Shown here one piece after another: positions 29,573 through 33,939 of a DNA stretch of 39,968 nt. The notes beneath the pieces were generated by a model. It made no database searches, had not been told where the DNA came from, and was given only the letters and a program-made list of their open reading frames with translations. The stretch comes from Candidatus Gastranaerophilales bacterium (GTDB lineage: Bacteria > Cyanobacteriota > Vampirovibrionia > Gastranaerophilales > Gastranaerophilaceae). The position numbers and the translations under genes were made by a program. Location of the stretch: the NCBI GenBank assembly GCA_944323595.1, contig CALUTF010000015.1, positions 1 to 39,968 on the forward strand, read 5' to 3'. Positions within the stretch are counted from its first letter, which is position 1; the number at the start of each line of letters is the position of its first letter.

Positions 29573-29914
29573 TTTAAGTCTTTAATACCTTTCTATTCAC
29601 CATAATTACTACTACGGCAACTTCTACTATATCCTAATTTTTGTGAACATTGCTCATACTTTCGTATGAAATCCACATTTTTTATTTAAGGTTTTTTTTT
29701 AAGAAGTCAACAGTGTTGCACCATGCATGTTACAGACATTTGTTACAAAATGTTAACTTGAAGATTTTGCCATTTGACAAGGGTTTTGGCCTATTTTTTA
29801 CATGAAAACCCTCTTATTCATGCAATTTTGAGAGATAAAAATTTTTTATAAAAGCATAGGGGATAATTAAAGTAAATAATTTTCTTTTCACGGGGAAAAT
29901 TGAAAGGGGAAAAA
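29573..29914. other. 342-bp intergenic region with divergent promoters
   Basis: No gene is visible. It separates the TPR gene (leftward) and the LysM-like gene (rightward). It holds TTGACA at 29774-29779 without a good -10 at 17 bases, and an inverted repeat AGGGTTTT/AAAACCCT (29780-29788 with 29805-29813) that spans likely promoter sequence. A long T-run lies at 29691-29699. The inverted repeat could be an operator. Confidence 0.4.
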
Positions 29915-31717
29915 ATGTCACTACAAGAATTACGATTTCAAATGGCTCTGAATGGCGGCAGTACAAATGGTGTAATTCCCAAACAACTTACACCGGAAGA
30001 ACTTGCTGCAAAGAAAAAAGCACAAGAAGAACTTATGGAAAAACTCAAACTGGCATCAGATACATTGAGTAAAACAGACAATCTTCAACTTAACGGTAAA
30101 AAGAACAAACAAAACCGTAAAGTAAGGTTGAATGCTTTAACAGAGTATTTCAAAAACGGCGGATTTGGTTTGACAGAAAAAGAAGCAAAAGAATTTGCAG
30201 AATTTGCTCTAAAAGATGAACAGGCGGAACAACGTGTTGAACATACCCGCTTGTATTTTGATAAAGACAAATATAATGCAAATAAAAAACAGGACAAACA
30301 AGAAGGCTTTGAAGCAGAATACATAAAAAATAAAACCGTAAGAAAAGCAATCCTAGCAAGACCGGAATTATTCTTTGAACAAAATCCGGACGGTTCATTC
30401 AAACTTGATGAAAAAGGTCAAATGATATTCTCTCAAGCAAAATATAATAATACATTGCTTGAACATACAGGTGACTATAGAATGGAACTCAGTGAAAGAG
30501 CAAACCTTGCATCTGAAATGGATGTCAAAAAACGTCACGCTAAAAAGATGGCAAAATACGGAAACTTTGATTATGAAAAAGACAGAACATGGTTATACAG
30601 AGCAGCTGGCATTCTTGCAGGAACAGGATTAGGAATTCTGACAGGCGGAATTCTCGGTAAATATTCACATACAAATATTGATATATCTCACCTGTCTCAA
30701 GCTATAGATGCAGAAAACGGAGAATTGCTTGCTGAAAAATTAAAAGAAGTCAATATCTCTAAATCAAAATTAAAACCATACGCAGCAGTAGGCGGATTAA
30801 GCGCATTACTTCCATCAATAGGTTTATCAATGTTCATAAAAGACAGGGGTAAATCAAGCATAATGCAAACAACTGCAGAAAACATTGTTCAAAACGGTGT
30901 AGCATCAGTTAAAGGCGAAGATAACAAGAAAATGGTTTCAGGTATCTTAGAATTAATGGATGCCGCAGGATTAAAATATGAACAAAAAGTCAGATTGATA
31001 GAATTGACTCAGGGTATAGCATCAGGAGAACATACAACAGAACGTGAACTTGCGGTACTCGGTAAAGAAATGAAAGCAATACTGACACTTCCTGAAGACG
31101 AAGGAGATGAAGGTGAAGAAACAGTTGTTACTCCAACACCAACACCAACTCCAACTCCAACACCTACTCCAACTCCGACACCGGAGCCAACTGTCGAATA
31201 CGGTGCAAAAATTACACCTAGAACAATTACTGAAACAAAAGAAGAAGATATATTCCAATATCACCACACTGCAGGTGAATACTGGTCAGGTATCGCAAAA
31301 GAAATGTACGGCGTTGATGATGCAACTGCATACAAACTTGGTAAAGAATTGAAAAAACGTCACGGTTTTGCACCATCATCAGCAGATATGCCGAAGATTG
31401 TCAACATACCGAAAGAACTTCTTGGTCATAAAAGAAAATATGATAATGAAGATGATGTAAAACGTATCAGAAGTACAGAGGCAAGCAGCGGCAGACAAAG
31501 AGCAACAAGTTCTTTCCAACCGAAAAAGACGACCGAAACATCAACGGTATATGATGGTTCAGTTTCTAGAACAACAAATCCTGGTAAAGACAATGCACAA
31601 ACTGAATCAAAACAAGTCAAGACAGGTATGGAAGAACAAGAAGCTAAAACATGGTACGAAACAGCTTGGCAAACAATTAAAGAAGCGCCTGAAAAAATCG
31701 CAAAACTCTTTGAGTAA
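29915..31717 (+). CDS. Large protein with hydrophobic segments, Thr-Pro linker and LysM-like domain
   Basis: A 600-aa lineage-specific protein from ATG 29915, behind AAAGGGG. Residues about 1-225 are helical, charged and Lys-rich. Two glycine-rich hydrophobic stretches follow: AAGILAGTGLGILTGGILG (about 230) and AAVGGLSALLPSIGLSMFI (about 289). They could form a membrane hairpin. A helical domain leads to a Thr-Pro repeat linker (about 406-423). After it comes a stretch resembling a LysM motif (YHHTAGEYWSGIAKEMYG, ending PKIVNIPKELLG, about 444-500). The last 100 residues are polar. No N-terminal signal peptide is seen, so the topology is unclear. Peptidoglycan binding is an inference from the LysM resemblance. 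Confidence 0.75.
   Translation: MSLQELRFQMALNGGSTNGVIPKQLTPEELAAKKKAQEELMEKLKLASDTLSKTDNLQLNGKKNKQNRKVRLNALTEYFKNGGFGLTEKEAKEFAEFALKDEQAEQRVEHTRLYFDKDKYNANKKQDKQEGFEAEYIKNKTVRKAILARPELFFEQNPDGSFKLDEKGQMIFSQAKYNNTLLEHTGDYRMELSERANLASEMDVKKRHAKKMAKYGNFDYEKDRTWLYRAAGILAGTGLGILTGGILGKYSHTNIDISHLSQAIDAENGELLAEKLKEVNISKSKLKPYAAVGGLSALLPSIGLSMFIKDRGKSSIMQTTAENIVQNGVASVKGEDNKKMVSGILELMDAAGLKYEQKVRLIELTQGIASGEHTTERELAVLGKEMKAILTLPEDEGDEGEETVVTPTPTPTPTPTPTPTPTPEPTVEYGAKITPRTITETKEEDIFQYHHTAGEYWSGIAKEMYGVDDATAYKLGKELKKRHGFAPSSADMPKIVNIPKELLGHKRKYDNEDDVKRIRSTEASSGRQRATSSFQPKKTTETSTVYDGSVSRTTNPGKDNAQTESKQVKTGMEEQEAKTWYETAWQTIKEAPEKIAKLFE
31133..31186 (+). repeat. Hexanucleotide minisatellite encoding Thr-Pro
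   Basis: About nine tandem hexamers of the type ACNCCN encode the Thr-Pro linker. Third-position variation (aca, act, acc and ccg) shows it has drifted rather than expanded very recently. Copy-number change here would alter linker length without shifting the frame. Confidence 0.85.
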
Positions 31718-31744
31718 TGTAATCTCCCCAAATATAAAACCAGA

Positions 31745-31769
31745 AGCTCCCGCTCATGCGGGGGCTTTT
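31745..31769 (+). terminator. Terminator after the LysM-like gene
   Basis: A 9-bp stem, 31745-31753 with 31758-31766 (one G-T pair), a 4-base loop TCAT and a short T-run. It lies in the 55-base gap between convergent genes, so it may also serve ispE on the other strand. Confidence 0.8.
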
Positions 31770-31772
31770 GCA

Positions 31773-33107
31773 TTATACAATTTTAACACCGAACGGAATA
31801 CTTTTGAGATTATTTTGTATCCAAAAACCGTCAGAGGGTGTGAATTCTCCGCCAATTAAAAAGTATGTGGAGCCTGAACCTGACATAACAGAGTCCGGAT
31901 ATCGATTTTTAATAGTTTGAAGTTCTTTATAATCATCGATTACAGCCCATTCAAGGTCGTTTAAAAAATCTTCACGGGATTGAATAATCCCCCCGCCTTG
32001 CTGCCCGTTCAAGAGCGGAGGATTATTCTCTTTATAAGCCCCTTGATAGAGGGTAGAATTTTCTGATTTCGGGGAAAGGTTAAATATTACCTGCTCCAGA
32101 TATTCAAGAACTCCGTCTATATTTTCAAATATATCATTATTCCAGAGCCTTACTACTGTAAACCCCTGTGATTGCAAAAATTCATCCCGTTTATTATCGT
32201 GTTTGATATTGTTAATTTCATTATGCTGACCGCCGTCGAGTTCTATAATCAGTTTTTTTTCAAAGCAGACAAAGTCCGCAATATAATTTCCTATAGGCTG
32301 CTGGCGTCTGAATTTTAGATTATGGAACTGTTTTTTCTGCAAGTGAAGCCACAAGGTATTCTCTGCGTCCGTCATCGCCTGACATAGCTGTTTAGCATAA
32401 ATTTGAATGGCTTTTGGGTAGGCATGAGTATATATAAGCCCCCCACCTAACCTCCCCCTCAAGGGGGGAGGAATATTATCTTTACCCTCCCCTTGAGGGA
32501 GGGTCGAAATCTCTGATTTCGGGGAGGGGCTTATTTTTTTCTCTGCGAATTTTGTGTAAGCTTCTTTTGCACTTATGCCCAAATTTTCAGGTTTAATCAG
32601 AGAGACTGAAAATTCTTCAAACGGCAATGGTTCCAATATCTCGCCTCTGCCGGAAGTTTTTTGTCTGCCGCCCTCAAGGCATAGGTTCAAATCAGAACCG
32701 AGTGAAGCGCACAACCCGTGTAAGTCTTTGCGGCTCAACGGACTGTCAAAAATTTCATTTAATCCGAATAGTGTTCCCGCAGCATCCGTGCTGCCTCCTG
32801 CAAGACCTGCCGCCACAGGAATATTTTTTTCTATAAATATTTCAATCTCGGCACTGAAACCAACGCGTTCCAAAAATAGTAATGCTGCTTTATGCACAAG
32901 ATTTTTTTCGTTATAGGGTATCTCACCACTTGTTCCGGAAAGTTTTATTTCCGTACGGTCGGATTTGTCAGCAGAAATAGTAAGGTAATCGTATAAACTT
33001 ATTGTCTGCATGACACTGTCTATATTATGGAAACCGTCTTCTCTCCTGTTTAAAATCTTCAGGGTCAGATTAATTTTAGCCGGACACTGTACCTTAATTT
33101 TTACCAC
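31773..33107 (-). CDS. ispE: IspE kinase with a nested DUF559 domain
   Basis: 4-diphosphocytidyl-2-C-methyl-D-erythritol kinase, the ATP-dependent fourth step of the MEP pathway. IspE is normally near 285 aa, and here the single open frame is 444 aa. Residues 1-190 give the GHMP N-half (PAKINLTL with Lys11, AAGLAGGSTDAAG, SLGSDLNLCLEGG). Residues 377-444 give the C-half (FLNDLEWAVI, VMSGSGSTYF). Between them, at about 192-376, is an in-frame insert: a 31-residue Pro/Gly-rich repeat, a DUF559 nuclease-like domain, and the same repeat again. Both IspE halves look intact, so the enzyme is probably functional. Start GTG 33107 lies inside rsmA (14-bp overlap). A gene of the same pathway, dxr, is at 9038. 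Confidence 0.93.
   Translation of the reverse strand: MVKIKVQCPAKINLTLKILNRREDGFHNIDSVMQTISLYDYLTISADKSDRTEIKLSGTSGEIPYNEKNLVHKAALLFLERVGFSAEIEIFIEKNIPVAAGLAGGSTDAAGTLFGLNEIFDSPLSRKDLHGLCASLGSDLNLCLEGGRQKTSGRGEILEPLPFEEFSVSLIKPENLGISAKEAYTKFAEKKISPSPKSEISTLPQGEGKDNIPPPLRGRLGGGLIYTHAYPKAIQIYAKQLCQAMTDAENTLWLHLQKKQFHNLKFRRQQPIGNYIADFVCFEKKLIIELDGGQHNEINNIKHDNKRDEFLQSQGFTVVRLWNNDIFENIDGVLEYLEQVIFNLSPKSENSTLYQGAYKENNPPLLNGQQGGGIIQSREDFLNDLEWAVIDDYKELQTIKNRYPDSVMSGSGSTYFLIGGEFTPSDGFWIQNNLKSIPFGVKIV
31983..32075 (-). repeat. 93-bp direct repeat, copy A (3' side of DUF559)
   Basis: Encodes SPKSENSTLYQGAYKENNPP then LLNGQQGGGII. Aligned to copy B it is clearly homologous but more diverged, and its palindromic blocks are partly decayed (for example CCTTGATAGAGGG in place of CCTTGAGGGAGGG). 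Confidence 0.85.
32433..32525 (-). repeat. 93-bp direct repeat, copy B (5' side of DUF559)
   Basis: Encodes SPKSEISTLPQGEGKDNIPP then PLRGRLGGGLI. It contains two intact palindromic blocks, CCCTCC-CCTTGAG-GGAGGG (32485-32503) and CCTCCCC-CTCAA-GGGGGGAGG (32451-32471). These resemble hairpin 2 of the 153-bp intergenic family in style and base skew. Confidence 0.85.
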
Positions 33108-33939
33108 TTTTTAATTCCTCTGAAAGTTTAGCAAGCATTTCTATTGAAAGTTTTTCCCCGCGGGTATTTTCATCCAGCCCCAGATTTTCCATGGCATTTT
33201 TGATATTTTCCTTAGAAAAACCGCCGCTCAAAAGACAATTTTTTATATTTTTTCTCCGCTGTGAAAAAGCTGCTTTGACAGTTCGTCTGAAATGAGAATA
33301 ATCTGTTAATTCAACACGCGGCTTATCTTTTATCACAAGTTTTACAAGTGCCGAATTGACTTTTGGCGCAGGATAAAAAGAACGTCTTCCAACATGCCGG
33401 AAGATTTCCACATCAGCCCAAAATTGCGAAAGTATTGTTAAAAGTCCGTACTGTTTTGACGGTGAATTTTCATCCGCGGCCATCCGTCTTGCAACTTCTT
33501 CCTGAACCATAAGGATAATTTCTGTAATCTTTTTGCGGTTTTTGTTGTCTAAATCATCTACTTCGCCAAGCAGGTGAGCTATAATAGGACTTGTAATATA
33601 GTAAGGAATGTTTGCAACAACTTTTACTTTTCCCTCACAGAGAGAAGAAATATCCGTTTTCAAAATATCGTTATGAATTATTGTTAAATTAGGAGCGTCA
33701 AGTTTTTGGAGTTCTTTAACAGCCTCCTCATCAAGTTCAATAGCAATAACCTGTTTTGCATGTTTCACAAGCTGTTCTGTTACAAAACCAACCCCCGGTC
33801 CGATTTCTACAATGGTATCGTCAGGTTTGATATCAGCTTTATCTATAATTGCTTTTATCGCCTCTCCGTCAATAAGAAAGTTTTGCCCGAGACGTTTTTT
33901 TGTTCTGAAAAATTTTGCACGTTCGAAGTAGTTAACCAT
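33094..33939 (-). CDS. rsmA: 16S rRNA dimethyladenosine transferase (KsgA/RsmA)
   Basis: A 281-aa SAM-dependent methyltransferase that dimethylates two adenosines near the 3' end of 16S rRNA. The opening KRLGQNFLID, the SAM-binding IVEIGPGVGFVTEQLV, EEAVKELQKL, and the catalytic VANIPYYITSPII are all present, followed by a C-terminal helical domain. Start ATG 33939 has no Shine-Dalgarno. A TATTAT box seven bases upstream suggests a leaderless transcript. It is co-transcribed with ispE, whose GTG start lies inside it; rsmA-ispE linkage is common in bacteria. Confidence 0.95.
   Translation of the reverse strand: MVNYFERAKFFRTKKRLGQNFLIDGEAIKAIIDKADIKPDDTIVEIGPGVGFVTEQLVKHAKQVIAIELDEEAVKELQKLDAPNLTIIHNDILKTDISSLCEGKVKVVANIPYYITSPIIAHLLGEVDDLDNKNRKKITEIILMVQEEVARRMAADENSPSKQYGLLTILSQFWADVEIFRHVGRRSFYPAPKVNSALVKLVIKDKPRVELTDYSHFRRTVKAAFSQRRKNIKNCLLSGGFSKENIKNAMENLGLDENTRGEKLSIEMLAKLSEELKSGKN

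What the first reader, a model, noticed from the sequence alone, without database searches (positions are those of the whole stretch)
31983..32534. DUF559 nuclease-like domain nested in frame inside the essential gene ispE, between direct repeats
Seen: one open frame contains both halves of IspE with about 185 extra residues between the GHMP N- and C-halves. The extra part is a DUF559 core with Asp, Glu-x-Asp-Gly and a downstream His, flanked by two 93-bp direct repeats 450 bp apart that stay open and in frame. Known: DUF559 belongs to the Vsr-like PD-(D/E)xK group. Inference: a mobile cassette whose palindromic ends code for a flexible Pro/Gly-rich linker, so it can land inside genes and be carried as an intein-like passenger without splicing. 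It may home through its nuclease, or be moved in trans. Unlike an intein, no splice-junction Cys/Ser or His-Asn is seen, so the host protein probably keeps the insert.
Basis: partly seen in the sequence, partly recalled or inferred. Interest (0 to 1): 0.88.

Follow-up and report, generated by a model that had tools for sequence, protein, structure and literature searches.

The report
Homing nuclease nested in essential genes
In gut-dwelling Gastranaerophilales bacteria a small DNA-cutting domain, bracketed by hairpin-forming DNA, sits in frame inside essential genes such as ispE and priA and has passed between species into the same spots, so it behaves like a homing element that is translated as part of its host protein instead of being spliced out.

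Summary
The window's only ispE (31773-33107, minus strand) is one open frame carrying a ~185-residue insert with an intact DUF559 nuclease (PF04480, E 1.4e-37), bracketed by palindromic units, in the linker between the IspE halves; most relatives have an uninterrupted ispE. In this order (Candidatus Gastranaerophilales) similar cassettes sit in frame inside priA, prmA, hydF, an M14 peptidase and a UvrD-like helicase gene, with insert-free same-genus alleles for the first four. Of 64 DUF559 copies, 53 have a GC hairpin on both sides (5% of control pieces hold one). In seven same-site pairs from different species the insert's synonymous divergence is 2.6-8 times lower than the host gene's, a homing signature; deeper pairs show no gap. 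The predicted fold is closest to a solved DUF559, then homing endonuclease I-Bth0305I, then Vsr. Conclusion: a non-splicing, translated, homing-type element. That the nuclease drives the homing, how new sites are entered, and that the fused host enzymes work are inferred. Similar nestings occur in other phyla. No description was found in the open-access papers searched.

The parts
31773..33107 (-). ispE open frame, 444 aa, interrupted in frame
   Evidence: the only ispE found in this genome
32535..33107 (-). IspE N-terminal part (residues 1-191)
31773..31979 (-). IspE C-terminal part (residues 377-444)
31980..32534 (-). inserted cassette: palindromic unit, DUF559, palindromic unit; junctions accurate to a few codons only because the host loop varies
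   Evidence: empty alleles
32434..32534 (-). upstream palindromic unit: outer stem with three inner hairpins; codes for the SPKSEISTLPQGEG..PPPLRGRLGGG linker
   Evidence: z -5.5
31984..32088 (-). downstream palindromic unit, decayed direct copy of the upstream one
   Evidence: z -1.65
32088..32405 (-). DUF559 (PF04480) nuclease domain; invariant E249, D278, E289-x-D291-G, H295 (numbering of the 444-aa frame)
33094..33939 (-). ksgA-like gene overlapping the start of ispE (context, not part of the element)
   Evidence: frame; named by likeness to the KsgA part of the fused frame L077, not scanned itself

Best explanation
It is a small selfish element: a Vsr-like/EDxHD-like nuclease (DUF559) gene bracketed by palindromic hairpin units, inserted in frame in linker-coding DNA of host genes and translated as an extra domain of the host protein, without splicing. 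Shown: the anatomy; insert-free alleles; occupation of several unrelated genes; a patchy distribution; and, for seven same-site pairs, an insert that passed between species after the host genes had diverged. Inferred: (1) the nuclease cuts the insert-free allele and repair copies the cassette with a short flank (homing); (2) the palindromes serve as ends for rarer entry into new genes, and because they code for Pro/Gly/Ser-rich linkers, in-frame landings in domain linkers are tolerated; (3) the fused host enzyme still works, since the gene is single-copy and its halves are under purifying selection; (4) old copies decay or are lost, sometimes leaving one palindrome as a footprint.
For: Empty ispE in most of the order, insert in all four g1 genomes and some of g35. 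Similar cassettes in frame in priA, prmA, hydF, M14 peptidase, UvrD-like helicase, at the ends of ispE and of a hydE/bioB-like gene; same-genus empty alleles for priA, prmA, M14, hydF. Hairpins on both sides in 53/64 copies, against 34/671 control pieces holding one; ends inverted in 45/53, own partner at median rank 3 of 53. All 15 priA inserts form one clade, while presence/absence needs at least 7 changes on a host PriA tree of 23 rows. Insert versus host pS: priA .144/.630.128/.529.030/.242; hydE .067/.544; M14 .030/.181; ispE .063/.201 and, for the window.178/.462; combined p 4e-42; no host stretch of equal length is as low. Deep pairs are equally diverged in insert and host, so codon constraint does not explain it. 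Catalytic residues invariant. Predicted fold: 3hrl (DUF559), then homing endonuclease I-Bth0305I (E 1.8e-4), then Vsr. dN/dS .04-.08 in the two pairs where it could be computed.
Against: Some same-site pairs show no gap: priA L080/L088, hydE L047/L050, ispE L033/L032. The seven pairs were picked among the least diverged. No target-site duplication or exact junction could be resolved, because the insertion loops vary. DNA cleavage is untested. Several genomes have many palindromes but no strong DUF559 hit, so the palindromes may have another mover. For the window's own pair, the neighbouring 605-aa frame also has stretches of 97-99% identity, though its overall pS is .342.
Confidence: 0.72

Rival explanations
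1. The palindromes are MITE-like units moved in trans by an unknown transposase; DUF559 is cargo caught between two units and does not drive its own movement.
For: Solo palindromic units occur between genes in the window's genome and in genomes without strong DUF559 hits; ends are usually inverted repeats and several are flanked by TA.
Against: 63 of 64 DUF559 copies have at least one such hairpin nearby, and palindrome number tracks DUF559 copy number across 286 genomes (Spearman .71) and inside genera g7 and g8. The nuclease is under purifying selection in the pairs tested. Repeated transfer into the same site of other species is expected of a homing nuclease, not of an untargeted transposon.
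Confidence: 0.17
2. Old insertions inherited vertically and lost many times; no homing.
For: Same-site inserts form host-gene clades; some pairs have equal divergence in insert and host; a few empty alleles keep a palindrome footprint.
Against: Seven same-site pairs have insert pS far below host pS; internal ispE inserts fall into at least three DUF559 lineages.
Confidence: 0.08
3. DUF559 is a useful accessory domain (repair, defence) recruited repeatedly into host proteins, and transfer reflects selection for that use.
For: Purifying selection on the domain; a DUF559 protein of Caulobacter, VsrA, is described as a Vsr-like protein (PMC12907096).
Against: The host proteins have nothing in common (isoprenoid kinase, primosome helicase, ribosomal-protein methylase, hydrogenase maturase, peptidase), and presence is patchy inside genera.
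Confidence: 0.03

Closest known systems
EDxHD homing endonucleases (I-Bth0305I)
   Same: The insert's predicted fold matches the I-Bth0305I catalytic domain second best in the PDB; site-specific lateral spread.
   Different: I-Bth0305I is described among group I intron homing endonucleases (PMC3943268); here no splicing element was found and the nuclease stays in the host frame. No DNA-binding extension like the one described for that enzyme was seen.
Inteins
   Same: In-frame nuclease-bearing passenger in essential genes, with insert-free alleles and homing-like spread.
   Different: No intein family in the Pfam scan.
Rickettsia palindromic elements (RPE)
   Same: Palindromic DNA inserted in frame in protein-coding genes and translated (PMC10969869).
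   Different: RPEs are about 150 bp and are described as coding for a short peptide; this element is about 555 bp and carries a nuclease domain.
mobE in a phage nrdA gene (Friedrich et al. 2007, known here only from a reference in PMC5374615, and general knowledge)
   Same: Homing endonuclease inserted directly in an essential gene, no splicing.
   Different: There the gene is split into pieces; here one fused frame is kept.
REP/RAYT systems and MITEs (general knowledge)
   Same: Small nuclease gene bracketed by palindromes, with solo palindromes elsewhere in the genome.
   Different: RAYT is an HUH (Y1) enzyme; here the enzyme is PD-(D/E)xK-like and copies lie inside host genes.

Membership tests
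DUF559 / Vsr-like PD-(D/E)xK nuclease | profile match and conserved catalytic residues | tested here: met
   PF04480 E 1.4e-37; invariant E, D, ExDG, H; fold match to 3hrl, I-Bth0305I, Vsr
Homing element | insert-free alleles at the same site | tested here: met
Homing element | lateral spread into the same site (insert less diverged than the host gene) | tested here: met
   seven pairs, combined p 4e-42; three pairs without the gap
Homing element | nuclease cuts the insert-free allele | not testable with these tools
   needs purified protein
Intein | splicing (Hint) domain | tested here: not met
   no intein family in the Pfam scan
RPE-like palindromic element | palindromic DNA in frame in coding genes | tested here: met
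RPE-like palindromic element | about 150 bp, short peptide only | tested here: not met
   about 555 bp with a nuclease domain
Insertion sequence | transposase gene | tested here: not met
   only DUF559 and the related profile MTES_1575 match the insert
Insertion sequence | terminal inverted repeats | tested here: met
   inverted match better in 45 of 53 copies, but direct in the window's copy
Insertion sequence | target-site duplication | tested here: inconclusive
   TA at both ends of several copies, host loops too variable to define a duplication

The most novel reading that the evidence does not exclude
A general class of translated homing elements: palindrome-bracketed DUF559 nucleases that invade linkers of essential bacterial genes, stay in the protein without splicing and home between species, with independent cases in Alphaproteobacteria, Rickettsiales, Nitrospira and Binatia genomes.
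Probability: 0.5. Interest if true: 0.92.

Novelty: new variant of a known kind. Interest (0 to 1): 0.86.

Why it matters
Homing nucleases are thought to live in splicing elements (introns, inteins) or between genes, so as not to destroy the host gene. Here the passenger seems to be tolerated as a protein domain, because its ends code for flexible linkers. That would be a further way for a selfish nuclease to live in essential genes, a source of domain insertions in proteins, and a natural catalogue of tolerated insertion points. It also suggests a role for many DUF559 proteins, a family still listed as of unknown function.

Tried and rejected
Assembly artefact: rejected, three congeneric genomes carry the insert. 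Intein: no domain found. Second DNA copy of this insert in the same genome: none. Exact junctions and target-site duplication: not resolvable. Whole-protein AlphaFold model: IspE halves not modelled with so shallow an alignment (mean pLDDT 54), DUF559 part well modelled, linkers low confidence. Codon constraint as the reason for low insert divergence: rejected, deep pairs saturate equally. Literature searches on DUF559 with palindromic, inserted, transposition, and on homing with Vsr or in-frame terms gave no description of such an element; open-access papers only. The first script on the new loci failed for a file-name reason and was repeated.

Full report
Observation. The window's ispE is one open frame of 444 aa (31773-33107, minus strand) with a DUF559 domain (residues 235-340, E 1.4e-37) behind the GHMP N-terminal part. 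Relatives with an ordinary ispE run from query residue ~191 directly to ~377. The insert lies in a loop whose length and sequence vary among relatives. The genome has no second ispE: its other hits are a frame-broken DUF559 copy and a ~30% identical GHMP kinase stretch. The direct repeats are there (105 nt, 74%, 450 apart). The upstream unit folds into an outer stem with three hairpins (z -5.5); the downstream unit is decayed (z -1.65).

Organism. The window's genome itself is not named; it shares a family label with these genomes.

The same kind of cassette in other genes. A survey of 286 genomes of the order with PF04480 showed DUF559 in many long frames. Reading 27 loci and 39 more showed in-frame DUF559 in ispE (internal and N-terminal), priA, prmA, hydF, an M14 peptidase, a UvrD-like helicase and, at the C-terminus, a hydE/bioB-like radical SAM gene; Pfam confirmed the hosts. 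One ispE (L063) carries two copies. Same-genus relatives have insert-free genes: priA is filled in G001 and G003 but empty in G000 and G002; prmA is empty in 16 of 17 sampled g38 genomes; M14 is filled in at least six and empty in most other sampled g8 genomes; hydF is filled in two and empty in six g38 genomes. In a sample of 192 genomes of the order, ispE matches run through the insert in nine or more, the nine I could read all in genera g1 and g35.

Ends. Of 64 DUF559 copies, in genes or free-standing, 53 have a GC-rich hairpin within 200 bp on both sides, 8 only upstream, 2 only downstream, 1 none; 34 of 671 control pieces have one. The two ends match better inverted than direct in 45 of 53, and a copy's own partner ranks a median 3rd of 53. 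In prmA of G284 the ends read by eye as perfect inverted repeats of 47 bp, TACCCTCCCCTTGAGGGAGGGT-CGGAATCTTTGATTCCG-GGGTGGGG (sequence). Palindromes and strong DUF559 hits go together across 286 genomes (95 both, 10 DUF559 only, 38 palindrome only, 143 neither; Fisher 3e-32, Spearman .71) and within genera g7 (p 6e-6) and g8 (p .005), weakly in g38 (p .06); relatedness of the genomes is controlled only by the within-genus tests. Solo palindromes exist between genes of G000, and about six insert-free alleles of prmA, M14 and hydF keep a palindrome-like stretch at the insertion point, judged by eye.

History. In a tree of 65 DUF559 domains (few columns, many forks open) most in-gene copies fall in one group of 46 (support 91/98); all 15 priA inserts form a clade (98/88); hydE inserts form another; internal ispE inserts fall in at least three lineages. 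On a host PriA tree of 23 rows, presence or absence of the insert needs at least 7 changes. For closely related same-site pairs the insert is much less diverged at synonymous sites than its host gene: ispE window/G002 .178 vs .462; ispE g35 .063 vs .201; priA g1 .144 vs .630; priA g7 .128 vs .529; priA g11 .030 vs .242; M14 .030 vs .181; hydE .067 vs .544; combined p 4e-42. No stretch of equal length in any of these seven host genes is as low as its insert. Neighbouring genes of the window against G002 have pS .342 (605-aa frame).563 (ksgA) and .627 (439-aa frame). Deep pairs are equally saturated in insert and host, so codon constraint does not explain the gap. Three pairs show no gap. The pairs were chosen from the least diverged; among all 17 pairs with host pS under .55, 11 have insert pS under half of host pS, two lie between, and four have a higher insert pS; these pairs are not independent. 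In ispE g35 and hydE, host divergence rises with distance from the insert, as expected of co-conversion. dN/dS of the DUF559 part is .039 (G000/G002) and .079 (G000/G003), the only pairs where it could be computed.

Enzyme. Catalytic residues are invariant in 22 and in 46 aligned sequences. The predicted domain (mean pLDDT 87) matches 3hrl, a solved DUF559, then I-Bth0305I, then Vsr at lower significance. A DUF559 protein of Caulobacter, VsrA, is described as Vsr-like (PMC12907096).

Beyond the order. A scan of named genomes gave 80 loci in many phyla; 39 have hairpins on both sides (250 bp, stem 9), 21 on one side, 20 on none; 9% of control pieces have one. By my reading of the sequences (no Pfam scan), DUF559 is nested in PriA of an Alphaproteobacterium at another linker (L262), in ValRS (L272) and Mfd (L301) of a Rickettsiales genome, and in HsdS-like proteins of Binatia (L243) and Nitrospira (L252) genomes. 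Empty alleles of these were not sought.

Mechanism. Most likely: nuclease-driven homing at occupied sites, rarer palindrome-assisted entry into new sites, tolerance through linker-coding ends, later decay. Cleavage, entry and host-protein function are inferred. The main rival is movement of the palindromes in trans with DUF559 as cargo.

Novelty. The parts resemble known kinds: homing endonucleases (PMC3943268), protein-coding palindromes in Rickettsia (PMC10969869), and a homing endonuclease that split a phage nrdA gene (reference in PMC5374615). A retained, non-splicing, in-frame homing nuclease in several essential bacterial genes was not found in the open-access literature searched. I therefore file it as a new variant of a known kind.

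Noticed in passing
L055:1383-1580 (genome G000, contig C4, about 31717-32172): A frame-broken DUF559 copy flanked by CCCTCTCC..GGAGAGGG palindromes in the window's genome, apparently decaying.
   Followed up: partly
L106-L110 (genome G000): Solo palindromes between genes, mixed with another palindromic repeat containing GTCGGATTtactAATCCGAC.
   Followed up: partly
L063:1157-2887: One ispE frame (577 aa) carries two DUF559 copies, one N-terminal and one internal.
   Followed up: partly
L077:1103-3292: ksgA and ispE read as one 730-aa frame, with a DUF559 insert in the IspE part.
   Followed up: partly
L093 and L301: Several palindrome-coded linker units in a row next to the insert in prmA and Mfd, all kept in frame.
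   Followed up: no
genomes G142, G159, G182, G194, G248, G031: 20-44 palindromes but no strong DUF559 hit, so the palindromes may persist or move without it.
   Followed up: no
window 29900-31717: 605-aa frame with a Pro-Thr repeat; some stretches are 97-99% identical to G002 although the region averages about 83%.
   Followed up: partly
L041:2240-6682: UvrD-like gene with DUF559 and a palindrome-coded peptide (TLAPWGRGDFSTLESFNSQVLEKLGEG) that occurs at two places in the same frame.
   Followed up: no
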